A DNA stretch of 64,000 nt from Sinosporangium album (GTDB lineage Bacteria > Actinomycetota > Actinomycetes > Streptosporangiales > Streptosporangiaceae). The notes beneath the pieces are model-generated. The model searched no databases. It was not told where the DNA came from and saw nothing but the letters and a program-made list of their open reading frames with translations. The stretch lies in assembly GCF_900100605.1 (NCBI RefSeq), contig NZ_FNCN01000014.1, forward strand, positions 1 through 64,000, written 5' to 3'. Positions 4,845 through 59,859 of this stretch are shown in pieces; the first letter of the stretch is position 1; each line of letters begins with the position of its first letter. A program made the position numbers and the translations under genes.

Positions 4845-5861
4845 TCATCGGGCGGACCAGGCGGCGAGGACGGATGCCTCCTTGCCGGGGTCGATGCCGT
4901 GGTGGACCCCAAGCCTTTCGAGGCCGAAGCTGCGTTCGGCCTCGGGGATCCCGCGCAGCCACGTCCAGGTGTCCGCGACGGTCTCGGCCATCGGACGTAT
5001 GCGCAGCCCCGCGGCGATCGCCTTGTCCGGGGACGCCTTCCAGGTGTGAGCCGCGGGTCCGCTCTCCGGCATCCAGAGCGGCAGCTCGGTGAACGGTGCG
5101 ACCTCATGGGCCAGGACGAACTCATCGGGGACCCACACCAGCTCGGCGTGCGAGCCGGTTGTCTCGGCGATGATGTCGAGCCAGCCTCCGAAGGAGAGGC
5201 CGCCGACGGGAGAGGTGGTGATGAAGCGGTCGTTCACCGCCTTCTCCGCCTGGTCGAGGGTGAAGACGGCGATGTCGCGGGCGTCGATGCCCTGGAAGGG
5301 CGAGACGGGCCTGCCGGGGGCGAGCACCTGGCCACCCCTGGCCATGCGGGTGAGCCACCAGGGTAGGCGGCCCACGTTCTCGTAGGGGCCGATGATCAGA
5401 CCCGGCTCGATGATCAGTGAGGGGCCGTCGAAGCGCTCTTCGACGGCCCGTTCGCAGCCCGCCTTGAGGAAGCCGTAGTCACCGGCCTCGGGGCCCGCGT
5501 CAGCGGGACAGGGGTGGCGGCGGCCGGTCTCGTCGACGGGTTCGGCGGGCCAGTCCGGGAAGGCGGACAGCGTGGAGATGAACGCGTAGTGCCTGGCGTG
5601 CCCGGACAGCAGTTCGGCGGACTCGCTCACCACGGTCGGGACGAATCCGGACACGTCAATGACGGTGTCCCACTGCCTGCCGTCCACGAGCCGCTCAAGG
5701 TCGGCGCGCACCTCGCGGTCACCGCGCACCGCCTCCACGCCGGGCTGGTCGACTCCGCTGACGCCGCGGTTGAACGTGGTGACGTCGTGTCCGCGTCGGA
5801 GAGCCTCCGCCACGATCGCGCGGCCGAGGAAGACGGTCCCACCAATGATCAATACCTTCAT
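4845..5861 (-). CDS. NAD(P)-dependent epimerase/dehydratase (extended SDR)
   Basis: A 338-residue extended short-chain dehydrogenase/reductase. The Rossmann nucleotide-binding loop is at residues 6-14 (IGGTVFLGR), the conserved Ser is in FISTLSA near 95-100, and the catalytic YxxxK is Tyr129-Lys133 in DYGFLK. The C-terminal half has the substrate-domain segment FQGIDARDIA. Relatives act on nucleotide sugars or are annotated as NAD-dependent reductases; the substrate cannot be told from the sequence. It is transcribed alone on the minus strand, 64 bases downstream of the end of the SulP gene, so it could be read through from that gene. Confidence 0.85.
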   Translation of the reverse strand: MKVLIIGGTVFLGRAIVAEALRRGHDVTTFNRGVSGVDQPGVEAVRGDREVRADLERLVDGRQWDTVIDVSGFVPTVVSESAELLSGHARHYAFISTLSAFPDWPAEPVDETGRRHPCPADAGPEAGDYGFLKAGCERAVEERFDGPSLIIEPGLIIGPYENVGRLPWWLTRMARGGQVLAPGRPVSPFQGIDARDIAVFTLDQAEKAVNDRFITTSPVGGLSFGGWLDIIAETTGSHAELVWVPDEFVLAHEVAPFTELPLWMPESGPAAHTWKASPDKAIAAGLRIRPMAETVADTWTWLRGIPEAERSFGLERLGVHHGIDPGKEASVLAAWSAR

Positions 5862-5925
5862 GCGTGCATTCTTCGTCCGTGCGAATCTCGGCGCGAGACC
5901 GTTTCGCCCACAGCGCAGGCGCCGG

Positions 5926-8181
5926 TCAGCCCACCGGGAGGTCCTCGGCGGCCTCCTGTCCGGTGAGCATGTGGACTCTGGCCTGCGCGATGTCGAAGTA
6001 GATGCCGACCAGTTCCAACCGTCCCGAAGCGACGAGCGCGTCGACGCCGGGGTAGGTGCGGAGGTTGTCCAACTGCTGGATCACGTTGACGCGGCACAGC
6101 CGGTCGAGCGGCCCGGCGTCCTCACCCGTGCTGTCGGTCATGATGTAGCGCGCCAGGCTGTGGTGGCCGTGCGTGAGCCAGCGGCGCAGGCCCGGCAGTT
6201 CCTCGGCGTTCACCGCCCCGCCGAGCAGCGCCGCCATCGCGCCGCACCCCGAATGGCCGCACACCGTGATCGTGCGGACGCCGAGCACGGTGGTCGCGTA
6301 CTCGATCGCGGCGACCACCGAGTCGTCGTAAGGCGCCGCGCCGTGCCGCGGGACGAGGTTGCCGATGTTGCGCACGGTGAACAGGTCGCCTGGGCCGCTC
6401 GCGGTGATGAGGCTGGGAACGACGCGGGAATCCGCGCAGGTGATGAAAAGGTGGGACGGCTCCTGCTTGCTTGCCATCCGCGTGAGAATGGGGCGCACGA
6501 GCGCTGCGGTGCGGCGGTGGAACTCGCGGGCTCCCACCACCAGCTCGGGCTGCTCGGGGCCGTGCGCGTGCGCGTGCCGGGTCAGCGCGGACGTCCGGCA
6601 GGGCCCCGGCCGGCGCCTGCGCCGGTCGGCCCACGGCAGCCACCAGTGGTCGGGCGTGACGGGCGGGGTCTTCGCCGGGAAGACGCGCACGCCCTTGGCG
6701 GCCAGCGTGTACCACTCGTCGTGCATCTCGTCGATATCGACGGTGCCGCCGAGGCGCTCATGCTCAAGCCGCCACATGTGCAGGGCCTCGAAGGCGGCGT
6801 TGTCCATGAAGTCGACGTTGAGGTCGAGGTCGACCGGGACGCCTGCGGGCACCGAGGCCAGTCCGGAGACGAGCCTCGGCACGCCGAGGAAGGTCAGCGA
6901 CCCGCCGATGACCACGTGCCGGCGGCCGTCCGGTTCGGCGTTGACGGTGACACTGATCCACGTGAGGCGGCGCAGCGCGAGCAGCGCCGCCAGCCCGATG
7001 CCGATCAGCGCCCCCTCGGCGAGGCCGATGAACACGACGGCCGCCAACGTGACGAGGTAGATCGGCACCTCGCCGTGTCCGCGCAGGTTGCGGATGTGCA
7101 CCAGGTTGACCATCTGGACGCCGATGAAGACGAGCAGTGCGGCGAGCGCCTCCATCGGGATGTAGCGGATGGTCCAGGCGAAACCAAACGCGAAGGTCAG
7201 CACCCACAGTCCCTGCATGACCGCCGACCAGCGGCTCCGGGCCCCCGCGCCCACGTTGGCGGTGCTGCGCACGATGACGCCCGCGACGGGCAGCCCGCCG
7301 AGCACGCCGGAGATCATGTTGGCGACGCCCTGGCCGGTGAGCTCGCGATCCAGGTCGGCCCGGGGGCCGGTGTGGAGCTTGTCGACGCCGACGGAGCACA
7401 GCAGGGTCTCCACGCCCGCGAGAAGCGCGATGAGCAGTACGGCTGCCGCGATGCCGTGCCAGTCGCCCTGCGGCCAGAGGGGCGAGGTCCACACGGTGGG
7501 GTCGACCGCGAGGTCCACGTGGGTGACGTCCCACGACAGGGTGGCGGACGCCAGGGCGGTGATGGTGAGCGCCGCGAGCGGGGCCGGGACGGCGCGGATC
7601 CGGCGCGGCAGGCGGCCCCACACCACGAGCACGCTGATCGTGAGCAGTCCGGCGGCGACCGCGTGGCTGTGGTTGGCCAGAAGCTGGGCGGGCAGCTCGA
7701 TGATGTTGGCCAGGGCGGAGTGCTGGGGGCTGCCGCCGAGCACCACGTGCAGCTGGGCCAGGGCGATCGTCACGCCGACCCCGGCCAGCGTGCCGTAGAC
7801 GACGGCGGGGGAGACGGCGAGCGCGGCCCTGGCGACCCGGCACAGGCCGAGGAGGAACTGCAGGGCCCCGGCCATGATGGTGATCATGCAGGTCGCGCGC
7901 CAGCCGTATGTCTGCACGAGGTCGGAGACCACGATCGCGAGTCCCGCCGCGGGGCCGCTGACCTGTACGGCGGAGCCGCCCAGGCAGCCCGCCACCACTC
8001 CGCCGACGACGGCGGCCACGAGGCCGGCCACCAGGGGCGCCCCGGAGGCCACCGCGATGCCCAGCGACAGCGGGATGGCGACGAGGAAGACGACGAGCGA
8101 CGCGGGGAAGTCGTGCCGGAGCACCGACCCGAAACCACTGAAAGTAGGCGATCTGTCACGCAGGGTGTCCATCGGCTTCAT
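5926..8181 (-). CDS. SulP-family anion transporter fused to beta-carbonic anhydrase
   Basis: A 751-residue fusion. Residues 1-420 form a SulP/SLC26 membrane transporter: repeated hydrophobic segments, VSGPAAGLAIVVSDLV in the N-terminal core and the GVANMISGVLGGLPV signature. Residues about 425-500 look like a STAS domain (VDLDLNVDFMDNAAFEAL). After a basic linker, residues about 560-751 form a beta-carbonic anhydrase with the zinc-site motifs CADSRV and CGHSGCG. Such fusions are known and are thought to move bicarbonate or another anion while interconverting CO2 and bicarbonate at the inner membrane face. ATG 8181 fits; the alternative MDTL start lies three codons inside. Confidence 0.93.
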   Translation of the reverse strand: MKPMDTLRDRSPTFSGFGSVLRHDFPASLVVFLVAIPLSLGIAVASGAPLVAGLVAAVVGGVVAGCLGGSAVQVSGPAAGLAIVVSDLVQTYGWRATCMITIMAGALQFLLGLCRVARAALAVSPAVVYGTLAGVGVTIALAQLHVVLGGSPQHSALANIIELPAQLLANHSHAVAAGLLTISVLVVWGRLPRRIRAVPAPLAALTITALASATLSWDVTHVDLAVDPTVWTSPLWPQGDWHGIAAAVLLIALLAGVETLLCSVGVDKLHTGPRADLDRELTGQGVANMISGVLGGLPVAGVIVRSTANVGAGARSRWSAVMQGLWVLTFAFGFAWTIRYIPMEALAALLVFIGVQMVNLVHIRNLRGHGEVPIYLVTLAAVVFIGLAEGALIGIGLAALLALRRLTWISVTVNAEPDGRRHVVIGGSLTFLGVPRLVSGLASVPAGVPVDLDLNVDFMDNAAFEALHMWRLEHERLGGTVDIDEMHDEWYTLAAKGVRVFPAKTPPVTPDHWWLPWADRRRRRPGPCRTSALTRHAHAHGPEQPELVVGAREFHRRTAALVRPILTRMASKQEPSHLFITCADSRVVPSLITASGPGDLFTVRNIGNLVPRHGAAPYDDSVVAAIEYATTVLGVRTITVCGHSGCGAMAALLGGAVNAEELPGLRRWLTHGHHSLARYIMTDSTGEDAGPLDRLCRVNVIQQLDNLRTYPGVDALVASGRLELVGIYFDIAQARVHMLTGQEAAEDLPVG

Positions 8182-8196
8182 GGAGCGAACCCTATG

Positions 8197-8258
8197 GCGT
8201 GTGTCCCCCCTCTCCTAAGCCTTTGAAGAAGGGCTTTGCACAAGCGGGGGACACACGC
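8197..8258. repeat. 13-bp perfect inverted repeat with nested hairpin upstream of SulP gene
   Basis: Arms GCGTGTGTCCCCC (8197-8209) and GGGGGACACACGC (8246-8258) are perfect complements separated by 36 bases. Inside the loop AAGCC and GGCTT can pair again. The element sits between the stop of the proline-rich gene (8292) and the start of the SulP fusion (8181), both on the minus strand. It could terminate the upstream transcript or act as an operator or leader structure for the transporter. No poly-U run follows. Confidence 0.6.
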
Positions 8259-8291
8259 AAAGAAGATCGGATATGGAGGGGTAAGCGCGGT

Positions 8292-10121
8292 TTACCGGTA
8301 GTAATCCGGGTAGTCCGGGTCAGGAGCCCGGTGGCTGCCGCGCGATCCCCGGCGGCGGCCCGGCTCGCCGGGGGAGGCGGAGCCATCGGCCGCAGTGCCA
8401 GTGCCGCTGCTGCCAGTGCCAGTGCCAGTGCCGCTGCCGGAGCCGGGGCCGTACATGTCGCCGAAGGACGGCCACGAGTCCGTGCCGGCCTGCGGGGCGG
8501 GGCCGCCGGCCCGCGGCGGGTCGGCCGGGCGGGCGGGGCCGCCCGCCGGCTCGTGCGGGGAGACCGCTCGCGCGGGGCCGGTCGTCGTGGAGGCGGCCGG
8601 GGTGGGGCCGGTGACGGCGTCGTCGTCGATCGTGGCCCAGCCGGAGCGCACCTCGTAGCTCTTCGGGTAGGTCTGCTCGCGTGACGTGCCGTAGGCCCGT
8701 GCCGACGGCCACGAGGCCGCCACGGCGGAGCGGCCGGGAGCGGCCGGAGGGTGGGTCGGCGCTGCGGCGGGCTGCACGGGGTGGGGGGCCGTGACGGGCT
8801 GCGCGGGCGTCGACTGGTCGTCGAAGATGTCGGAGGCCCCGGGGTGGGCGGGATTGGGAGGGTAGGACCCGGTGCGCGGCCAGGTGGCGTCGGTGGAGTC
8901 CGGTCCGCCGAAGGCGGGGGCGCCGCTCGGATAGGCGCCGCCGCGCGGGTCGGCGGGGGCCCCGGAGGGTGTCGCAGCGGGGGCCCCGGCGGCGGGCATG
9001 GAGGGGGCCGCCGGAGCGGGGAACCCTCCCGTGGCACGGCGCCTGGCCGCCGGAGGAACGGCGGGGGCGGGCGGATGCGGCCCCGGCTGACCCGCGGGGG
9101 GCGTGCCGACGCCTCGGCCTGCCGGGCCCACGTCGCCGACCGGGGCACCGCCCGTCGCGAGCGCGTCGCCGGCGGGAGTCTCCGCCCCGCGGGCCGTGGA
9201 GCGCGTGGTCCTGCTCGACGCGCGGTTCGCCGTACGGCTCCCGCCCCGTCCCCCGGAGCCGCGCGCGGGGGGCTCGGCGGGGGCGTGCGGGTCGACGGCG
9301 CGCGACCCGCGGCCGGACGCGCGGCGCCCCGGCGCGGGTGTCTCGCGCGGGCCGGCGCCGTGGGGCGCGTCGTGGGGCGCGTCGTGGGGCGCGGCCTGGC
9401 GGGCGGAGGTCTCGCGGGGCGCGGAGGCGTGCTGCGCCGGGGGTTGCTGCGCGGGAGGCTGCTGTCCGGGGGCGTACTGCGCGAGGACCTCGGGCGTGGG
9501 GGCCGCGAACGTCATGGTCTTCTGCTCGGCGAGCACGGCGGCCGACGTCACGGGCGCCGGGTGCGGCGCCGCGGGCTCGACCAGGTCGGCGAGGCCCTGC
9601 CCGCCCACGGGCATCTGCCCGCCGGCGAGATTCGGCAGCGGCGCCTGCATGGTGACCGCGTCGGCCGACACGGGTGCGCCGGTCGCGGGCGCCGCGGCGG
9701 GAAGCTCGGGGTTCTCCGCGTCCGAGAGGGGACGGCTCGCGCCGACCTTGGCCGCGATCGACCCGCCGAAGCCGCCGTCGTCGGCGCGCACCCGGCCCCA
9801 GTATTCCTCGTCGTAGTCGTCGGCTGTGCCGAACTCGTCCACGCCGCGGCGCCCGCGGGGCCCGCCGACGCGGGGCACCGACGGTTTCGGGCGCGGCACG
9901 TCGATCGGGCTGAAGTCGGGCGTGAACTTGTCCATCCGAGGTTCGGAGGCGGCGAACTCGTCGGTTGACCGGCTCGGCTTGACCTCCTCTTGCTCGGCCA
10001 TCTCTTTCAGCCGCTCCGGGGGGAGCGCGCTCTCCCGGCGGCTCATCGACCGCATGCCCAGTGCCACGACGACGAGCACGAGGAGCACGACGGCGACGAG
10101 ACTCAAAACGACCGCAGTCAT
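8292..10121 (-). CDS. Membrane-anchored proline-rich hypothetical protein
   Basis: A 609-residue protein with one N-terminal membrane helix (residues 4-22) and then a low-complexity tail very rich in Pro, Ala, Gly and Ser, probably disordered and cytoplasmic or periplasmic. The only less biased part is residues 25-130, with acidic and charged segments such as MDKFTPDFSPIDVP and DDYDEEYWGRVRADDGG, the latter typical of conserved actinobacterial proteins of unknown role. Near the C-terminus a 6-bp repeat (GTGCCA on the minus-strand complement) gives a Gly-Ser-Gly-Thr run. No enzyme motif is visible. ATG 10121 starts directly at the membrane helix. Confidence 0.65.
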   Translation of the reverse strand: MTAVVLSLVAVVLLVLVVVALGMRSMSRRESALPPERLKEMAEQEEVKPSRSTDEFAASEPRMDKFTPDFSPIDVPRPKPSVPRVGGPRGRRGVDEFGTADDYDEEYWGRVRADDGGFGGSIAAKVGASRPLSDAENPELPAAAPATGAPVSADAVTMQAPLPNLAGGQMPVGGQGLADLVEPAAPHPAPVTSAAVLAEQKTMTFAAPTPEVLAQYAPGQQPPAQQPPAQHASAPRETSARQAAPHDAPHDAPHGAGPRETPAPGRRASGRGSRAVDPHAPAEPPARGSGGRGGSRTANRASSRTTRSTARGAETPAGDALATGGAPVGDVGPAGRGVGTPPAGQPGPHPPAPAVPPAARRRATGGFPAPAAPSMPAAGAPAATPSGAPADPRGGAYPSGAPAFGGPDSTDATWPRTGSYPPNPAHPGASDIFDDQSTPAQPVTAPHPVQPAAAPTHPPAAPGRSAVAASWPSARAYGTSREQTYPKSYEVRSGWATIDDDAVTGPTPAASTTTGPARAVSPHEPAGGPARPADPPRAGGPAPQAGTDSWPSFGDMYGPGSGSGTGTGTGSSGTGTAADGSASPGEPGRRRGSRGSHRAPDPDYPDYYR

Positions 10122-10284
10122 TGCACCACCCTCAAGGCCATGGCCTTCCAGCGGCGCCGGTGAGGTCGCGCGGCCATCGACGCGACCTGCCCCCCTTGTT
10201 CACCTGCGCTCAGCGAATGGAACTGATTGTGTCGGACCACTATGAGCGTTGTCACACCCTATGTGAAGAATTGATAACTCATGA

Positions 10285-10884
10285 CTACCTCCGGTTTTCG
10301 CGGGGCGACTCGATGCCTGTGGCGGTCAGTCGCCCTCTCGCGATGGTCTGGGAGGCGATGTCTTGCAAAAGGCCCTCGGACAGGGAGAGGGGGGCGCTCT
10401 TCCCGTTGGTGACGACCTTCTCGCGTAGCGCGTAAACGCTGAACCGGTAGGTGCCCTGCGGATTGCACGGGGGCACGTATGCCGCCGTTCCCTGACTTGT
10501 CTGCCCCTGCCGGGCACCGTCGGGGAGGTTGTCGGCGATGTTCTCCGGCACCTCGGTGGTGCCGGGAGGGATGTCGAAAAGGACCCAGTGGACCTGGGAA
10601 CCGGCCAGTGAGCTGTCGTCGACCACGATGGCGATCGACTTGGCGTCCGCCGGCACGAAGGACCAGCGCAGTGGAGGGTTGCCCTGCGTCCCGTGGCAGG
10701 AATATCCGGACGGCAGCGGATCGCCGTCTCTGAGTTGGGGGCTGGAGACCACGAACTCCGCCACGGCCGGCGGGTCCGAGGACTTGCCGAGGATTCCGCA
10801 GCCGGACACGCAGACAGCGAGCGCCGTCACCGCAGCGGTGATGGAGGCCCGGCGCGCGGCTGCGAAGGTCGTTGGCTGCCCCAT
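10285..10884 (-). CDS. PEBP/YbhB-family lipoprotein
   Basis: A 199-residue protein of the phosphatidylethanolamine-binding / Raf kinase inhibitor-like family. It has a signal sequence ending in the lipobox VSGC (Cys near residue 29), so it should be attached to the outside of the membrane. Family motifs seen are the DGDPLPSGYSCHG segment, PPLRWSFVPADAKSIAIVVDD, VHWVLFDIP with the ligand-pocket His, and YRFSVYAL. Ligand and function of the bacterial members are not established. ATG 10884 is the natural start. The gene is divergent from the AfsR-like regulator, with about 90 bases between the two starts. Confidence 0.88.
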   Translation of the reverse strand: MGQPTTFAAARRASITAAVTALAVCVSGCGILGKSSDPPAVAEFVVSSPQLRDGDPLPSGYSCHGTQGNPPLRWSFVPADAKSIAIVVDDSSLAGSQVHWVLFDIPPGTTEVPENIADNLPDGARQGQTSQGTAAYVPPCNPQGTYRFSVYALREKVVTNGKSAPLSLSEGLLQDIASQTIARGRLTATGIESPRENRR

Positions 10885-10977
10885 GCCCGATGATGCTACG
10901 CGGATTCGAACGCTGGGCTGACCCGTTCCGCCGGTTCGGTGGCGCGGAATTCACCCGGAATCCGACAGAATCTAGGG

Positions 10978-13900
10978 ATGGAGGGGTTGGGATCGGACGC
11001 GGAGACGAGCTTTGCCGTCCTCGGCCCCCTCCAGGTCGGACACGGTGGAAAGCCCGTCCAGATCGGCGGTCGGCGCCTGCGGGCGCTTCTGTCGCTGCTC
11101 GCGGGAAGCGCCGGCAAAACGGTGTCCAGCTCCGTTCTCGTCGACGGCGTCTGGGGCGAAAGCCCACCGGCGAATGTGACGAACGCCCTTCAAGCTCTGG
11201 TGTCGCGAGCGCGTGCCGCGCTCGCTCCGGGGGCTTCGCGCGAGGGCGGAGCGCTCGTCGCGGGCGACGCCACCGGATACCGTCTCGCCGTCTCGCCCGG
11301 CCAGGTCGACGCCCACCGCTTCGCGGCCCTCGCGGACACGGGCCGCCGCGCGCTGGCCGGCGGTGACGCGCACCTCGCGTGGACCTCGCTCGGCGAAGCG
11401 CTCGCGCTGTGGCGCGGCCCCGTCTTCACCGACCTCGCGGACGGGGACACCGCCTCGCTGTGGACCGCCCGCCTGGAGGCGGCCCGCCTGGCCGCCCTGG
11501 AGGACCGGTTTGAGGCCGCTCTGCGCCTCGGCCGCTTCGCGCAGGCCACCGCGGGCCTGCCCGCGCTCGTCGCCGCGCATCCGCTGCGGGAGCGGTTGCG
11601 GGCCCAGCTCATGCGCGCGCTGTACGGCGAGGGTCGCCACGTCGAGGCCCTCGCGGCCTACGAGGACGCCCGTGAGACGTTCGCCGACCGGCTCGGCGCC
11701 GACCCCTCGCCCGACCTGGCGGCCGTCCACCTCGCCATGCTCAAGGGCGAATGGCGCGAGGAGCGCGGCGCCCCGCCCGAGCCCCCGCCCGACCCGGCCC
11801 CCGGCCCGGTCTCCGACGCGGCCCCCGGCGGCGTCGCCATGCGGCACGCACCGGCACCCCCCGACGCGGAGCGGACGCGCCGGAGCACCCTGCCCGCGCG
11901 CCTGACAAGTTTCGTCGGCAGGGAAACGGATGTCGCCGCGGTCGGCGACCTGCTGGCCGCGAACCGGCTGGTCACGCTGCTCGGCCCGGGAGGTGCGGGC
12001 AAGACCAGGCTCGCCGTGGAGTCGGCCGAGCCGCTCGCCGGGCACGGGCGCCTGCCGGGCGGGGTGCGCCTGGTCGAGCTCGCCGGAGTGGCGGCGGGCG
12101 CCGACGCGCGCGAGGTGGCCGAAGCCGTGAGCGCCGCCGTCGGAGTGCGGCCGGGCCATTTCCAGCCGGGGCTCGCCGCCGTCGAAGCGCAGCGGCCGCA
12201 CGACCCCTTGGAGCGGCTGCTGGGTGCGTTGACGGGCAGGCACCTGCTGATCATACTCGACAATTGCGAACACGTGATCGAATCGGCCGCCCTGGTGGTC
12301 GACCAGGTGCTCGCCGAGTGCCCCGAGGTGCGGGTGCTCGTCACCAGCAGGGAACCCTTGAACATCACGGGAGAGACCCTCTGGGCCGTCTCACCGCTGC
12401 ACGTGCCCTCGCCCGGCGAGCCCGCGCGGTCGTCGGCGGAGGCTCCCGCCGTACGGCTGTTCGCCGACAGGGCCGCCGCCGTACGCTCGGGGTTCTCCGT
12501 CGCCGACCACCTCGACGTGGTCGTCCGCATCTGCCGGGAACTGGATGGCATGCCGCTGGCCATCGAACTGGCCGCGGCCCGGCTCCGGTCGATGTCGCCG
12601 CAGGACCTCGCCGACCGCCTCGACGACCGGTTCCGGGTGCTGACCGGCGGCAGCCGTACGGCACTGCCACGGCACAAGACGCTCCGCGCCGTCGTCGAGT
12701 GGAGCTGGGACCTGCTCGACGAGCGCGAGCGCATGCTCGCCCGGCGGTTCGGGGTGTTCGCCGGAGGCGCGAGGCTGGCCGCGGCCGAGCGGGTGTGCGG
12801 CGGGGAGGGCCTCGACCCGGCCGACGTGCTGGACCTGCTCGGACGCCTGGTCGACAAGTCCCTGGTCACCGTCACCGTCGAGGGCGGGCGCTCCGGTGAG
12901 GCCCGCTACACCATGCTGGAGACCATCCGCGCCTACGCGCTGGAGCGGCTTTCGGAGTCGGGGGAGCGGGAGCGGATGCGGCTCGCCCACGCTGAACACG
13001 TCACGCGGTTCGTGGAGGAGATCGAGCCGGGGCTTCGCGACCGCAGGCAGCTCGACGTGCTGGCGGCGATGTCCGCCGAGCACGACAACGCGTCCGCCGC
13101 GATCCGCTGGGCCGTCGACGCGGGGCGCGGCGACATCGCGCTGCGGCTCGTAGGGGCGCTCGGCTGGTATTGGTGGCTGACCGGCCACCGCAATGAGGCG
13201 GTCGCCCGCAGCCGTGAGGCGCTGCGCGCGGGCGAGGGCGCCCCGCCGCACGCGCGGCTGGTGGTCCGGGCGGTCCACAACCTCAACGTCTACGAGCAGC
13301 TGCAGCTCGTCTCGGGCACGGAGGCCGCGGCGCTGCTGCGGGACATACAGGAGTCGGCCGTCGCGGTGGGGCGCGAGTCCCACCCGTTCGCCGCGATGGC
13401 GACGAGCGTCATCGCCCTCGCCGCCGACGAGCATACGGAGCCCGACTGCGTGGCAGCGTTGCGCACCCACTCGGACCCGTGGGTGCGCACCTGGGCGCGC
13501 ATGCTCAGGGGATTCCTCGGGATCGGGAACGGCAGGGTGGCCGAGGGAGAGCGGGAGACCGAGCTGGCACTCGCGGGCTTCGAGGCCCTGGGCGACCGGT
13601 GGGGCGCCGCAAGCTGCCTGGCGGCCCTGGCCGAGACCAACTACCTGCGGGGACGGGTCGGGGAGTCCGCCGACCAGTCGCGGGCGGCCATCGCCATGAC
13701 GGAGGAGTTCGGAGCGCCGGAGCACACGCTCCACTTGCGCGGCCGTCTCGCCGCCTCGTTGTGGACGGCCGGGGAGAGGGAGGCCGCCGAGGCGGAGCTC
13801 GCCCGGGCGGTTCAGATCATGACGGAGGCGTGGGACCCCCTCACCGCCGTCATCCTGCTGGTCCTGCGCGGCGACTTCGCGCGTGAGAGGGGACGGTACG

Positions 13901-53825: not shown

Positions 53826-54105
53826 GTGCTTCTGACGATCTCGACAACCCGCACACCAGCGACAGATCTGGGCTACCTCCTTCATAAGCACCCTGACCGG
53901 GTGCAGGAGTTCGAGCAGTCGTACGGCACCGCCCGGGTCTTCTATCCCGAAGCCGAGCCAGGCCGGTGCACGGCCGCGCTGATGCTCGACGTGGACCCGG
54001 TGAGACTGGTCCGCTCCCGTGGGAGGAACTCTCCGGATTTCGCCCTGTCGCAGTTCGTGAACGACAGGCCGTATGCCTCCTCCTCGCTGCTCGCGGTGGT
54101 CGCAG
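53826..54105 (+). pseudogene. 5' fragment of hen1 (RNA 3'-end 2'-O-methyltransferase)
   Basis: The translation starting at GTG 53826 (LLTISTTRTPATDLGYLLHK, RVFYPEAEPGRCTAALMLDV, FVNDRPYASSSLLAVV) matches the N-terminal domain of bacterial Hen1, which methylates RNA ends during repair with the kinase/ligase Pnkp. Similarity stops after about 93 of the usual 450-500 residues; the frame stays open to 54416 but the rest does not look like Hen1 and has no methyltransferase motifs. No pnkp gene is adjacent. I treat it as a truncated relic. Confidence 0.8.
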
Positions 54106-54475
54106 GCGAGATCGCACCTGGCGGCGATTTTCATCACGAACTGCGTGAAGGGGGTCGGGCGCCACCCGTCGGCGAGAAGTTCCGCGACATCGACGGGCTC
54201 TGTGGTCCTCTCCGGGAGAGGGGGCCCTTTAGTAGGGGGTTCTTTAGAGATGTGGCCTTTAGGGATTGGCGCCGCTTCGTGCTCACTCCCAGCGTTTGCG
54301 AAGAGCAGTCATCCTACGATACCTATATCCTAAAACCGATATTGTCACATCAATCATGTCAATATAGAATTTGTCGGTCGTTCGTGATAGGACCATCGGA
54401 GCGCGATTTCATGTGACCCACCGGCCTGAGGGCGGAGGCCCGCCCCAGGTCACGTGGCTGGGGGTGGTGTGGGCG
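54106..54475. other. AT-richer junction region with promoter, no gene
   Basis: A 370-base stretch between the hen1 fragment and the FXSXX-COOH-like gene. From about 54225 to 54400 it is clearly poorer in GC than all neighbouring DNA, suggesting an acquired or rearranged junction. It contains a hairpin-like GGTCCTCTCC/GAGGGGGCC segment around 54210-54232 and a good promoter (54342-54370). Confidence 0.5.
54342..54370 (+). promoter_or_regulatory. Sigma-70-type promoter upstream of the fxs-like genes
   Basis: TTGTCA (54342-54347), a 17-base spacer and TAGAAT (54365-54370) give a close match to the housekeeping consensus. ATATTG and CAATAT overlap the two boxes as a 6-bp inverted repeat, a possible operator. 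Confidence 0.6.
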
Positions 54476-54682
54476 ATGGGCGAGGGCATCCGCGACCACC
54501 GCTCGGATCTCGTCGACCTGAGCGGCGTCGACCTGAGCGGCGTCGACCTGAGCAGTGGTGACCTGAGCGTGCTCGCCGAGCTGCCGGAGACGGCATTGTC
54601 GGCTTCTCTGCGAAGAATCCGCAGAGAAGCCGCAGCCGGTTCCATGCTCTGCGCCTTCGACGGATTCCGGAATGCGATCTGA
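54476..54682 (+). CDS. FXSXX-COOH-type RiPP precursor peptide, FxN variant
   Basis: A 68-residue small protein with the layout of FXSXX-COOH precursors: an acidic N-terminus, a leucine-rich leader with repeated VDLSG (15-bp repeat, three copies), a helix LPETALSASLRRIRREA, and an Ala-Phe-containing C-terminus. The canonical FxSxx tail is replaced by FRNAI, with Asn at the Ser position. In the described systems a radical-SAM enzyme crosslinks the Phe to the residue two positions later. ATG 54476 has GGGGGTGG upstream; GTG 54413 is in frame. The fxsT-like gene follows, which supports the call. Confidence 0.65.
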   Translation: MGEGIRDHRSDLVDLSGVDLSGVDLSSGDLSVLAELPETALSASLRRIRREAAAGSMLCAFDGFRNAI

Positions 54683-54866
54683 GCGCGTGCCGGGAAAGGC
54701 TCTCGCGAGAGGTAGCAGTACATATACTGGTTTTGGATGCTTCGCTGCCTAAGTTTGGATATCTAGGAAATTTTCCGGTTTCGCGGGGTTGCTGCCGAGC
54801 GTTGGAGGTTGATATGGAACGTTTGGTATCGCGGATGATTCGCGGCACGCACCCGATACGAGGGCG

Positions 54867-57800
54867 GTGACCGCCGTGGCGGCAGGGCCCGGCGTCGTCG
54901 TCTCCTTCGTCTCCTACGGCGGAGGAACCGGGCAGACGGCGGCCATCGCGAACATCGCCTGGATCCTCGCGTCGGCGGGGCAGAAGGTGCTCGTGGTCGA
55001 CACCAGAACCGAGGCCCCCGCCCTCCACCGCTACTTCGCCCCCTTCGGGCGGCCCGTGCTCGACGCGGAGCGTCCCGCCGACCGCAACAACCCGCTCGCC
55101 GCGGTCGTCCGGCTCGACTGCGACCCTCCGTCCCGGGACGGCCGCGTCGACTACCTCGGGCCCGCACTGCCCGAACCGGCGATCGGAGAGCGGGCCCACA
55201 TTCCCCGCTTCTCCTTCGAGGCGTGGACGCGCCGCCTGCCCGACCTGCGCCGCAGGCTGACCTCCCACGTCTACGACTACGTGCTCGTGGACGGCCCCGC
55301 CGGAGCCGGCGACATCGCCGTGGCCACCGCGGCGCAACTCTCCGACACCGTGGTGCTGTGCGTGTCCATGACCCCCGGGGCGATCATGGGCAGCGGAGCC
55401 CTGGCGCGGCGCATGCTGAGCAGGCGCACCGAGCTGCGCATCCTGCCAGTGCCGACGGGAGTCGACGAGCGCGACCCCCAAGGGCTGCGGCGGGCGCGGC
55501 TGCTGGCACGCGAACGGTTCGCCTCCATCACGGCGGGCGAATCCTCCCTGCTCGGGCAGATCGAGGTGCTGTACCGGCCGGAGTTCTCCCACCAGGAGAA
55601 ACTCGCCGTGCTGCTGGACGGCGACGACGAGCACGCCCGGCTGACGCGGGCCTACGAACTGCTCGCCAGGCTGATCAGCGATGACCGGGTGCGGTCGATG
55701 ACACCGCCCGACGCCGCGCTCAGGGAGCGCTACACCCGCGCGCTCGGCCAGTCGTTCTCCACGCTCCCGACCGGGGTGTCCATCGTCTACGCGCCGCGCG
55801 ACCGCGTCTGGGCCGACTGGTGCCGCGGCCTGCTCGGCGAACACGGCGTCCCCACCGAGATGGTGCCGGCCCTGGCCTCCCGCGTCCCGCCGCCCGTCGA
55901 GGAGGGCCACCACGTTCTGCTGATCTCCCCGCGCAACCTCGCCCGCGCCTGGGCCGTCCACACCCGCGACCGCCGTACGGAGCGGAAGCGGCCCGCGCGC
56001 CCGGCCGAGGGGGCCCGCGTGTCCGGCCGGACCGTCGCGGTGCTGGTCGACGGCGCCGACCAGCCCGAATGGGCCGCCTCGCTCGACCGGCTCGACCTGC
56101 GCGACATCAAGGAGGAGCAGGCGGAGGAACGGCTGCGCAGACAGCTTGGACTCACCTCCTTCCAGGAGTTCCGGCCCTTGCCGGCGACGCGCTTCCCCGG
56201 CGCCGCCGCCGACGGGCGAAAGCCCGGCACCGGGCCGGGCCACCGTTCCTACCCGCCGCGCAACCCGTCGTTCGTCGGCCGCGACGAACTGCTGGAGTCG
56301 CTGCGGGACAGCCTCGCGCCCACCGTGCTCGCCCCCGAGCCCTACTACCTGCGCGGCGACGAAGGGGTAGGCAAGAGCCAGCTCGTCCTGGAATACGTGC
56401 ACCGCTTCGCCCCGGACTACGACATCATCGGCTGGATCCCGAGCGGTTCCAGAACCGACATCCGCAAGGGCCTGGCCGACCTCGCCGAAGCGCTCCAGAT
56501 CCCGCCCGGAGGCGACGGCGCCAAGGCCATGCTCAAGGCCCTGAACGTCGAGCCGTCGCGCTGGCTGCTCGTGTACGACAACGTCGACGACATCCGCCAC
56601 CTCGACGGGATGACCCCCCGGTCCCGCTCCGGGCACGTGATCGTCACGCTCACCTCTTCGGCCGCCGACGGGCAGGGCGAGCCCGTGCCGCCCTTCGACC
56701 GGGACGAGAGCGTCGCCCTCCTGTTGGACAAACTGCCCGCGCTCGACGTGGAGGACGCGGCGGGCGTGGCCGCGGCCGTACGCGATGTGCCGCTCGCGGT
56801 CGAACTGGCCTGCGCCTGGATCGGTGAGGACGCGCGGTGGCGCCGGTTCCGCAACGTGCCGGACGCCGAGGCCGCGGCGCAGGCGGTGAGCCGGTTCCGC
56901 GCTACCCTCGACCGCGCCCTCGGCGCCCTCGGCGCCCTCGGCGAGCTCGCCGGGCCGTACGAGGTGTCGGAGAGCACGCGAGAGAGCACGCGAGAGAGTA
57001 CGCGAGAGACCGCGGTGGCGAGCACGCCCGAGATACGGGCCATTACGGCGATGGCGCTGGACTCGCTACGGTTCCGCACGTTCGGCAAGGGCGTGATCTG
57101 GCTGCTCCAGCTCATCTCGTTCCTGTATCCCGCACGCATCTCGCTGAAGCTGCTGCGCTCGTGGCGGGTCGCGTCGGAGCTCGCCCGCTTCGGCGAGGGG
57201 CTCGACGACCCGCAGATGATCGACGCGGTGCTGGTGAAGGCCGAAAGGTACGGCCTGATCGCGATGCGGTGGGGCGGGGCCCCCTCCGTGCGCACCAATG
57301 CCCTCATCCAGCGTCTGATCCGCGGCCTCATGAGCGAGGAGGAGGCGGAGCTGCGCAGACGGCAGGCACTCGGCGTGCTCGCGGCCTACGCCTTCCCGAG
57401 GTTCGACGCGTCCGACCAGGAGCACCAGGCGGTGTTCACCGAGCTGTGGAACCACATCCACCCGTCGGGCGCGCTGCACAGTACCGACGAGCGGGTCTGC
57501 GGCTGGGTCCTCAACCAGCTCCGCTTCCTCTACGCCGCCAACCGGATCAGCAGGCTGGAGGCGGGACGGGAGATAGGCGCAGAGGCCCTGGCCGCGTGGA
57601 GCGCCAACCCCGCCAGGCATGAGCTGCTGCCCGACCTCAACGTCGTGGTCGCCAACCATCTGCGGGCCCTCGGCGACTTCGACCGGGCCCACGAGCTGGA
57701 CCTCGACGCGCTGTCGGCGCTGCGCTCGCGCTACGGGACCAGGAGCGCCCGCACGCTGCCCGCGAGCCGCGGCTACGCCGCCGACCTGCGGGCCCTCGGC

Positions 57801-58757
57801 CAGTTCGACGTCTCGGCGGCCGAGGAGTTCTCGATCCTGCTGACCTCGCGCCACCTGTTCGGAGACGACCACGAGGAGACCCTGGCCTCCGCCAACAACG
57901 GCGCGCTCGCCGCGTGCCTCGCCGGGAACTTCCAGGAGGCGCTCGAACTCGAACTCGACACCTACGCCCGGCAGGTGCGCCTGTGGGGCGGTGACTCGCC
58001 CCGGGCGCTGTGGAACGGCTGCAATGTCGGCGTATACCTGCGTGAGCTCGGACGCTATGCCGAGGCCGAACGCCGGCTGCGGCAGGTGCGCGACCGGATC
58101 GGCGGCACCCAGCCCGGCGTCACCCTGCCCAGGCTGCGCCTGGACCGCACTCTCGCCGCGACCTACCGGAACGTCGGGCGCCACCTCGGCGACGTCGCCA
58201 AACTCGACCAGGCCAGGTCGCTGCACAGCGCCACCTTGGAGGGCTACCGGGCGCTGCTCGGCGCGGATCACTTCTCGACGCTCGCCTGCACGGCGGGATA
58301 CGCCTGGACGCTGCACGCCGCCGGTGAGCACCGCGCCGCCGTGGACCACGGGACGGCCGCCTACGAGGGCCTCCGCCGTACACGCAGCCCGTTCACCCTG
58401 GTGGCGGCGGTCAACCTCGCGGTCTTCCTCCGGGCCGACGGCGATCTGGCGGGCGCGCGCGACCTCGGCGGCGAGGCGATGGAAGCACTGACCGCACGCC
58501 ACGGCGACCTGCACCCCTACGCACTCGCGGCCACCCTCAACCACGCCAACACCCTGGTGGCGCTGCAGAAGTACGGCGAGGCCCTCGACCTCGGCCGAGC
58601 GGCCTGGGAGGGCTACGTCGCCCGATTCGGCAGGGACAGCCCCTTCAGCGTGATCGCCGCGGCGAACGCCCAGGACACGCGGAGGCTGGCCCGGGGAGAG
58701 ACGGCCCGGGGCGGATACACGCGATCCGACATCGACATCGAGGTGCTGTGGTTCTGA
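54867..58757 (+). CDS. fxsT: FxsT-like protein: ParA-like, TIR-like, NB-ARC and TPR domains
   Basis: A 1296-residue protein with the architecture of FxSxx-COOH system TPR proteins. Order: ParA/MinD-like domain (1 to about 260) whose P-loop reads YGGGTGQTA with the usual Lys and Arg/Lys lost; a TIR-like domain (about 300-430, SIVYAPRDRVWADWCRGLL); an NB-ARC ATPase from NPSFVGRDELLE (about 466) with intact Walker A GDEGVGKSQ and Walker B-like WLLVYDNVDD; then TPR repeats (about 870-1280). It looks like a STAND-type sensor or scaffold. A 12-bp in-frame repeat (ESTR x3) lies near 56970. GTG 54867 fits the domain start. Confidence 0.82.
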   Translation: MTAVAAGPGVVVSFVSYGGGTGQTAAIANIAWILASAGQKVLVVDTRTEAPALHRYFAPFGRPVLDAERPADRNNPLAAVVRLDCDPPSRDGRVDYLGPALPEPAIGERAHIPRFSFEAWTRRLPDLRRRLTSHVYDYVLVDGPAGAGDIAVATAAQLSDTVVLCVSMTPGAIMGSGALARRMLSRRTELRILPVPTGVDERDPQGLRRARLLARERFASITAGESSLLGQIEVLYRPEFSHQEKLAVLLDGDDEHARLTRAYELLARLISDDRVRSMTPPDAALRERYTRALGQSFSTLPTGVSIVYAPRDRVWADWCRGLLGEHGVPTEMVPALASRVPPPVEEGHHVLLISPRNLARAWAVHTRDRRTERKRPARPAEGARVSGRTVAVLVDGADQPEWAASLDRLDLRDIKEEQAEERLRRQLGLTSFQEFRPLPATRFPGAAADGRKPGTGPGHRSYPPRNPSFVGRDELLESLRDSLAPTVLAPEPYYLRGDEGVGKSQLVLEYVHRFAPDYDIIGWIPSGSRTDIRKGLADLAEALQIPPGGDGAKAMLKALNVEPSRWLLVYDNVDDIRHLDGMTPRSRSGHVIVTLTSSAADGQGEPVPPFDRDESVALLLDKLPALDVEDAAGVAAAVRDVPLAVELACAWIGEDARWRRFRNVPDAEAAAQAVSRFRATLDRALGALGALGELAGPYEVSESTRESTRESTRETAVASTPEIRAITAMALDSLRFRTFGKGVIWLLQLISFLYPARISLKLLRSWRVASELARFGEGLDDPQMIDAVLVKAERYGLIAMRWGGAPSVRTNALIQRLIRGLMSEEEAELRRRQALGVLAAYAFPRFDASDQEHQAVFTELWNHIHPSGALHSTDERVCGWVLNQLRFLYAANRISRLEAGREIGAEALAAWSANPARHELLPDLNVVVANHLRALGDFDRAHELDLDALSALRSRYGTRSARTLPASRGYAADLRALGQFDVSAAEEFSILLTSRHLFGDDHEETLASANNGALAACLAGNFQEALELELDTYARQVRLWGGDSPRALWNGCNVGVYLRELGRYAEAERRLRQVRDRIGGTQPGVTLPRLRLDRTLAATYRNVGRHLGDVAKLDQARSLHSATLEGYRALLGADHFSTLACTAGYAWTLHAAGEHRAAVDHGTAAYEGLRRTRSPFTLVAAVNLAVFLRADGDLAGARDLGGEAMEALTARHGDLHPYALAATLNHANTLVALQKYGEALDLGRAAWEGYVARFGRDSPFSVIAAANAQDTRRLARGETARGGYTRSDIDIEVLWF

Positions 58758-58773: not shown

Positions 58774-59859
58774 ATGGCGACGCGCCGGCTGACCGTCCAG
58801 ACCGACCTCGCACCACAGGCGACCCTCGACGGGACCCGGGAAGGGGTACTGGCAGGGGGGCAGGCGGGGGCCCGGGAAGAGACACGGCCCAGGGGCGTCT
58901 ACGAGCCGGTGGTCGACCAGTGCCGCGAGTTCCTGGCCCGCGACAGCGGAGTGCACCACCTCGCCCACTACACCGGAGGCATCTGGGACTTCGCCCTGCA
59001 CGTCCTCGCCGACCCCGCCGTGCGCGCCCTTCCGGGCCGCGCGGAAGGGCCGGACCTACGGTCCGGCTACCGGCAGGCCGGACGCATGCTGATCTTCCAG
59101 GTGGAGCGGGTCGGCGACTACCTCGCCGACCTCAGGAGCGGCACCCTGGTCAGAACAGTGGTGGAGAGCGGCGACTGCGTCGCCGTCTACGTCTCGCTGC
59201 GCCCCCAGGTGGCGCTGGTGGGCATCACCCTCGACCCGGCCCGGGTGTGGGAGGCCGACCGGGGCATGGCCGAACTGATCGCCGGAATCCGCGAGCGCGT
59301 CCGCCTGCCCGACGAGGACCTCGGCGGATTCCGGCGCAACGCCGTCCCCGCCGCCCACGCGATGAGCGCCGACCTGCTCACCGTGTACGGCGACGCCGGC
59401 GTGGACCCGGTGATCCGGCGCGCGGCGCGGATCACCGCCGCCGAAGTGGGCCCCCTCGACCTCCACTACCTCGCCTACTACGACGACTTCAGCCTCAAGT
59501 TCTCCGTCGACTGCCTTACCCATCCGGACCTGGCCGACTACTTCACCGACATCTCACCCGAGGCCCGCCGCGCGAAGTATGGCGAGGTGGGGGACAGGGC
59601 GGGGGTACTGGCGGGCGACTTCGGCCATGCCGTACGCCTGGTGAGCAGGAGCAGGCCGAGGCGGCTGGTCCTCGACGTGCAGCAGGGCGCGGTGTTCGTC
59701 AGGTGGCTCGACACCGGCCGCCACCTGGTGGGCGTCACGCTCGACCAGTCGATGGTGGCCGCGGCCGAACGCCGGCTCGACATGCTCAGGCCCCGGTTCG
59801 AGGAGCTGTTCCCCCTGCCCGCGGGCGGTGTCGTCCCGCCCGGCGCTCTCACACTGTGA
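58774..59859 (+). CDS. Unrecognised protein with internal duplication, partner of the FxsT-like gene
   Basis: A 361-residue protein I cannot assign. After a variable N-terminus (1-50) it contains two related units of about 95 residues. Unit 1 runs from HHLAHYTGG through YRQAGRML and GDYLADL to VALVGITLD; unit 2 from LHYLAYYDDF through YGEVGDRAG to HLVGVTLD. Each ends with a strand VG-[IV]-TLD and a long helix (ADRGMAELIAGI, AERRLDMLRPRF). The strand-helix end loosely recalls roadblock/LC7 domains, but this is only an impression. It starts 16 bases after the fxsT-like stop with AGAAGGGGGG upstream, so it is co-transcribed. Confidence 0.7.
   Translation: MATRRLTVQTDLAPQATLDGTREGVLAGGQAGAREETRPRGVYEPVVDQCREFLARDSGVHHLAHYTGGIWDFALHVLADPAVRALPGRAEGPDLRSGYRQAGRMLIFQVERVGDYLADLRSGTLVRTVVESGDCVAVYVSLRPQVALVGITLDPARVWEADRGMAELIAGIRERVRLPDEDLGGFRRNAVPAAHAMSADLLTVYGDAGVDPVIRRAARITAAEVGPLDLHYLAYYDDFSLKFSVDCLTHPDLADYFTDISPEARRAKYGEVGDRAGVLAGDFGHAVRLVSRSRPRRLVLDVQQGAVFVRWLDTGRHLVGVTLDQSMVAAAERRLDMLRPRFEELFPLPAGGVVPPGALTL

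What the first reader, a model, noticed from the sequence alone, without database searches (positions are those of the whole stretch)
54476..58757. FXSXX-COOH-like precursor ending FRNAI paired with FxsT but without the FxsB maturase
The 68-residue product has the size, leader and neighbour of FXSXX-COOH precursors, but its terminal pentapeptide is F-R-N-A-I. Asn replaces Ser at the position that the radical-SAM enzyme crosslinks in three-residue cyclophanes; F/W-x-N motifs occur in other cyclophane RiPP families. No CxxxCxxC radical-SAM gene lies in the window, so maturation would have to be in trans or the peptide works unmodified.
Basis: partly seen in the sequence, partly recalled or inferred. 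Interest (0 to 1): 0.75.

Follow-up and report, generated by a model that had tools for sequence, protein, structure and literature searches.

The report
Peptide system recently stripped of maturases
This soil actinomycete still carries the small precursor peptide and the large ATPase of a known predicted conflict system, but a recent deletion of about 7.9 kb cut away the enzymes that should modify the peptide, and the peptide's 'odd' ending is a normal variant of the family.

Summary
In detail: a 68-residue FxsA-like ORF ending FRNAI (54476-54682) lies just upstream of a 1296-residue FxsT, and no intact FxsB lies in the window. The interpretation needs changing. In Sinosporangium siamense (same genus) the orthologous FxsA ends FVSSI, and an intact fxsB and an HExxH peptide hydroxylase gene lie divergently upstream. 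In the window a deletion of about 7.9 kb at a GTGG microhomology (54096-54099) fused the 5' part of hen1 to the first codons of fxsB. It cut fxsB at the third cysteine of CxxxCxxC and removed pnkp, a sugar transporter and the hydroxylase. The fused hen1 fragment is barely decayed, so the loss is recent. Asn at F+2 is not anomalous: F-x-N cores sit beside intact FxsB in six other loci, among them the two nearest relatives outside the genus. The genome keeps one FxsB elsewhere (contig C18, another clade) but no HExxH hydroxylase. FRNAI is therefore most likely a native F-x-N precursor recently orphaned from its maturases. Extra finding: this subtype always carries a fourth gene (58774-59859), with no family hit, that encodes two roadblock/MglB-fold domains.

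The parts
53829..54099 (+). 5' fragment of hen1 (RNA 3'-terminal 2'-O-methyltransferase), truncated
   Evidence: TIGR04074 positions 1-93, 137 bits, the best Hen1 match in the genome; 83% DNA identity to S. siamense hen1
54096..54099 (.). deletion junction, GTGG microhomology shared by hen1 and fxsB
   Evidence: GCGGTGG in S. siamense hen1 (L027:1256) and GCAGTGG in fxsB antisense (L027:9129); the window reads GCGGTGGTCGCAGG
54093..54166 (-). 5' remnant of fxsB (radical SAM maturase), cut at the third Cys codon of CxxxCxxC
   Evidence: reads TPFTQFVMKIAARCDLACDH against FPFQQFVVKIASRCDLACDH(C) in S. siamense FxsB; blastn 78% over 74 nt
54476..54682 (+). fxsA-like precursor gene, 68 aa, ends FRNAI
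   Evidence: TIGR04268 26 bits; orthologue in S. siamense L027:9543-9746 ends FVSSI; dN/dS 0.23
54511..54569 (+). 15-bp tandem repeats in the leader (VDLSG units), a 10-aa insertion relative to S. siamense
   Evidence: the repeat finder, spacing 15,15; alignment
54665..54679 (+). core pentapeptide F-R-N-A-I
   Evidence: aligned codon by codon with FVSSI
54814..54870 (+). short conserved ORF (18 codons) with GGAGG Shine-Dalgarno, its stop overlapping the fxsT start
   Evidence: same length and coupling in S. siamense L027:9930
54867..58757 (+). fxsT: MinD/ParA-like N-terminal domain, weak TIR-like segment, AP-ATPase/STAND, TPRs
   Evidence: NF040586 602 bits; AAA_KGGVGR-like; TIR_2 weak (E 0.046); TPR_12; 69% identical orthologue
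58774..59859 (+). tandem roadblock/LC7 (MglB-fold) protein, 361 aa, conserved fourth gene of this subtype
   Evidence: tblastn finds it only in 13 loci of this architecture, just downstream of fxsT; AF2 pLDDT 85; MglB/roadblock Z 9.4, both halves

Best explanation
This is a FxSxx-type RiPP/AP-ATPase system of the subtype fxsB(-HExxH) divergent, fxsA-fxsT-tandem roadblock. It has recently been orphaned by a deletion of about 7.9 kb between hen1 and fxsB, probably by end joining at GTGG. Ancestrally FxsB would have crosslinked Phe to residue +2 (Ser or Asn) of FxsA, the HExxH enzyme would have modified the peptide further, and the processed peptide would have served as a signal or toxin working with FxsT. 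FRNAI is most likely a native F-x-N core of this clade and not the product of decay. Today FxsA is most likely made unmodified and the locus is on its way to loss. Shown: gene content, the junction, the recency of the loss, F-x-N beside intact FxsB in relatives. Inferred: the crosslink chemistry on FRN, the role of FxsT, and loss of function.
For: S. siamense has hen1-pnkp-transporter-HExxH-fxsB-fxsA-fxsT in order, and the window is collinear on both sides of one junction. Pnkp and HExxH are absent genome-wide, and Hen1's only good match is this fragment, while 46 of 61 genomes of the family sample have Hen1 over the cut-off. Hen1 fragment dN/dS is 0.10; one private change in 51 conserved columns, where about 43 are expected if neutral for the whole branch. 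F-x-N beside FxsB in L083, L085, L101, L117, L127, L199. FxsT and FxsB trees place the window or S. siamense with L101 (FQN) and L199 (FLN), support about 0.8.
Against: An intact FxsB elsewhere (C18) could act in trans. fxsA and fxsT remain open with dN/dS 0.23 and 0.40, so continued function is not excluded. Parsimony over all relatives is tied between Ser and Asn as the ancestral residue. One assembly only.
Confidence: 0.8

Rival explanations
1. FxsA is matured in trans by the genome's other FxsB on contig C18, which crosslinks Phe to Asn; one FxsB serves several scattered precursors (C18, C50, C88 and the window).
For: C18 FxsB is complete (498 bits, CNLACDYC). Three further FxsA-like ORFs keep FNSSI/FNSSL; C50 and C88 have no intact FxsB beside them. 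F-x-N is seen beside FxsB elsewhere. Phe-Asn crosslinks are known for XncB/OscB (PMC11002830).
Against: C18 FxsB lies outside the clade of FxsBs that serve this subtype and has its own adjacent precursor. The HExxH partner is gone from the whole genome. The C50 system is visibly broken too.
Confidence: 0.17
2. The terminal FxSxx drifted to FRNAI by neutral decay after FxsB was lost.
For: In the five core codons about 4 of 5 nucleotide differences change the residue, against dN/dS 0.21 in the preceding 30 codons.
Against: The deletion is too young: with at most 20% of the branch since the loss, about 0.9 nonsynonymous changes are expected and P(>=4) is 0.012 or less. The nearest relatives with FxsB also have F-x-N.
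Confidence: 0.12
3. The unmodified FRNAI peptide is functional with FxsT, a FxsB-independent mode.
For: fxsA and fxsT are open, and the upstream region is conserved (54256-54393, 79%).
Against: FxsB is present in 54 of 60 sampled FxsA loci; four of the six exceptions are short contigs or contig ends. The loss is recent, so conservation proves little.
Confidence: 0.08

Closest known systems
FxSxx-COOH / FxsB three-residue cyclophane systems (TIGR04268, TIGR04269, NF040586)
   Same: homologous precursor leader, FxsT next to it, orthologous locus in S. siamense with FxsB
   Different: fxsB reduced to its first codons; core F-R-N-A-I; leader with tandem VDLSG repeats
Standalone peptide-processing systems with AP-ATPase and inactive MinD/ParA domain (Kaur et al. 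2020, PMC7159879)
   Same: FxsT here has the described MinD-like + AP-ATPase + TPR layout; S. siamense has the HExxH ('MPTase') and radical SAM genes
   Different: maturation genes deleted here; carries a tandem roadblock protein (the word 'roadblock' does not occur in the main text of that paper)
XncB/OscB (Xye, Grr) triceptide maturases that link Phe/Trp to Asn (PMC11002830)
   Same: aromatic-x-Asn motif
   Different: different precursor and enzyme families; no such enzyme encoded beside this locus
MglB / roadblock-LC7 proteins
   Same: predicted fold of each half of 58774-59859 (Z about 9.4)
   Different: two copies in one chain, linked to FxsT, no Pfam/NCBIfam match

Membership tests
FxSxx-COOH precursor (TIGR04268) | model score over 28 bits | tested here: not met
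   26.0 bits; the S. siamense orthologue scores 29.0
FxSxx-COOH precursor (TIGR04268) | C-terminal F-x-S-x-x | tested here: not met
   F-R-N-A-I; the feature is itself variable, 40 of 60 with Ser
FxSxx-COOH precursor (TIGR04268) | orthology to a bona fide FxsA | tested here: met
   syntenic, aligned orthologue in S. siamense ending FVSSI
FxSxx system | adjacent FxsB radical SAM/SPASM maturase | tested here: not met
   only a 5' remnant; intact in S. siamense
FxSxx system | FxsT partner | tested here: met
   NF040586 602 bits
FxSxx system | HExxH peptide hydroxylase gene | tested here: not met
   none in the genome; present in 59 of 69 comparison loci
Triceptide (three-residue cyclophane RiPP) | i to i+2 C-C crosslink | not testable with these tools
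   needs mass spectrometry/NMR
Roadblock/LC7 (58774-59859) | roadblock fold | tested here: met
   predicted model, MglB Z 9.4 for residues 40-178 and 9.4 for 210-350; prediction only
Roadblock/LC7 (58774-59859) | sequence-profile match | tested here: not met
   no Pfam or NCBIfam roadblock hit for any of 14 members

The most novel reading that the evidence does not exclude
A single FxsB (contig C18) matures several scattered precursors in trans, including this F-x-N one by a Phe-Asn crosslink, so the FxsT-roadblock system stays functional without its own maturase.
Probability: 0.13. Interest if true: 0.55.

Novelty: new member of a known kind. Interest (0 to 1): 0.33.

Why it matters
It removes an apparent anomaly: neither the Asn core nor the missing maturase marks a new chemistry. 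It shows that F-x-N cores are native to part of the FxsB family, which makes Phe-Asn crosslinking by FxsB directly testable. It also gives a natural deletion mutant for asking whether FxsT systems need the modified peptide, and it points to an undescribed tandem roadblock protein as a fixed fourth component of one subtype.

Tried and rejected
Sequencing or frame error at 54668-54682: rejected, same frame and length in S. siamense. Chance ORF: rejected, conserved in place with dN/dS 0.23. The genome-contig scan with FxsT found only S. siamense, so wider comparison was made with the genome search. A library search for FxsB + cyclophane papers found none; a profile search of solved structures with the 361-aa protein gave only chance matches. 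One genome search failed. The first dN/dS for gene 58774 used a wrong start in S. siamense and is discarded.

Full report
OBSERVATION. The ORF at 54476-54682 encodes 68 residues ending AFDGFRNAI, followed after 184 bases by the 1296-codon FxsT ORF. It scores 26.0 bits against TIGR04268 FxSxx-COOH, just below the 28-bit cut-off, and FxsT scores 602 bits against NF040586. FxsT has a MinD/ParA-like N-terminus (KGGVGR-type), a weak TIR-like stretch, an AP-ATPase/STAND part and TPRs. This is the layout Kaur et al. describe for standalone actinobacterial peptide-processing systems (PMC7159879).

THE SISTER LOCUS. The window belongs to a genome with one congener held, Sinosporangium siamense. Its orthologous locus (L027) reads hen1 (989-2437), pnkp (to 5048), a sugar-porter MFS gene (5217-6626), an aKG-HExxH peptide hydroxylase (6685-8247, minus), fxsB (8082-9227, minus; 450 bits, over the cut-off), fxsA (9543-9746, ends FVSSI; 29 bits, over the cut-off) and fxsT (9980-13777). 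The window is collinear from fxsA onward and again at the start of hen1.

THE DELETION. Window 53812-54099 matches S. siamense hen1 at 83%, and window 54093 onward matches the first codons of fxsB on the minus strand. The joint is GCGGTGGTCGCAGG at 54093; hen1 has GCGGTGG at L027:1256 and fxsB antisense has GCAGTGG at L027:9129, so GTGG is shared and about 7873 bp are missing relative to S. siamense. The cut falls at the third cysteine codon of CxxxCxxC (CDLACDH|C becomes CDLACDH|R). Genome-wide, Pnkp is absent, Hen1's only N-terminal or strong match is this fragment and TIGR04267 HExxH is absent, in a genome rated 99% complete. Hen1 over the cut-off is present in 46 of 61 genomes of the family sample.

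RECENCY. The hen1 fragment has dN 0.079 and dS 0.76 against S. siamense. Of 51 Hen1 columns conserved across relatives, the window deviates in three, two of them shared with S. siamense; neutral drift along the whole branch would give about 43 changes. The loss therefore falls in roughly the last 10-20% of the branch. On that scale fewer than one nonsynonymous change is expected in the five core codons, while four separate FRNAI from FVSSI. Neutral decay after the loss is a poor account of FRNAI. Caveat: this is a small sample, a constant neutral rate is assumed, and some changes may lie on the S. siamense branch.

IS ASN ODD? In 60 FxsA loci from the family Streptosporangiaceae, F+2 is Ser in 40, Ala in 10, Asn in 6, Asp in 2, Gln in 1 and unclear in 1 (my reading of the C-termini; a rougher regex tally gives the same picture). 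FxsB lies within reach in 54 of 60. Asn occurs beside FxsB in L083, L085, L101, L117 and L127, and in L199. L108 is also F-x-N but sits at a contig end. In the FxsT tree the window and S. siamense group with L101 (FQN) and L199 (FLN), support 0.82; the FxsB tree groups S. siamense with the same two, 0.80. Asn and Ser are equally parsimonious as ancestor once outgroups are counted. Phe-Asn crosslinks are known for related enzymes XncB and OscB, and Phe-Ser for MscB (PMC11002830). That MscB's InterPro family is FxsB is from memory.

TRANS MATURATION. One FxsB over the cut-off remains in the genome (C18) with its own short GFNSSL ORF. It falls outside the clade of FxsBs that accompany this subtype, and the HExxH enzyme is missing. 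Two other FxsA-like ORFs, C50 (VAAFNSSI, beside broken fxsB and fxsT pieces) and C88 (AAFNSSI, no FxsB on a 9-kb contig), also lack a cis maturase. A shared maturase remains possible but is the less likely reading.

A FOURTH GENE. Gene 58774-59859 has no Pfam or NCBIfam match. tblastn finds it in 13 loci, each just downstream of fxsT in the fxsB-divergent architecture (in L120 the fxsB side runs off a short contig), and in none of the other FxsA loci examined. The AF2 model (pLDDT 85) shows two alpha/beta domains; both match MglB at Z 9.4 (residues 40-178 and 210-350), and Foldseek lists roadblock proteins. The fold is predicted, the function unknown; roadblock proteins often regulate or scaffold NTPases, so a partner role with FxsT is a reasonable guess.

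VERDICT. A recently disabled member of a known kind. Shown: gene content, junction, recency, natural F-x-N variation. Inferred: crosslink chemistry, signalling role, present loss of function.

Noticed in passing
window 58774-59859: Unnamed 361-aa tandem roadblock/MglB-fold protein, found only downstream of FxsT in the fxsB-divergent subtype.
   Followed up: yes
window 54814-54870: 18-codon ORF (MERLVSRMIRGTHPIRGR) with GGAGG Shine-Dalgarno whose TGA overlaps the fxsT GTG start; same length and coupling in S. siamense (MDRLVSLMILGVERIPRW). Possible translational-coupling leader.
   Followed up: partly
window 54511-54569: 15-bp tandem repeats lengthen the FxsA leader by 10 residues relative to S. 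siamense.
   Followed up: partly
L022 6192-6957 (G000:C50:118191-118956): Second broken FxSxx locus: FxsA ending VAAFNSSI intact, followed by a short internal fxsB piece joined to the C-terminal part of fxsT.
   Followed up: partly
L023:3374-3547: FxsA-like ORF ending VAAFNSSI without any FxsB on its 9-kb contig, upstream of a 694-aa protein weakly like the FxsT ATPase part.
   Followed up: no
L001:2719-2808: Very short (29 aa) GFNSSL ORF just upstream of the intact FxsB on contig C18.
   Followed up: no
L194: FxsT homologue (G079) with no FxsB found by tblastn on the 14.3 kb held around it.
   Followed up: no
L083, L085, L127, L117: FxsA cores FVNDPE, FINEGDD, FTNRV beside intact FxsB: natural F-x-N variants worth testing for Phe-Asn crosslinks.
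   Followed up: partly
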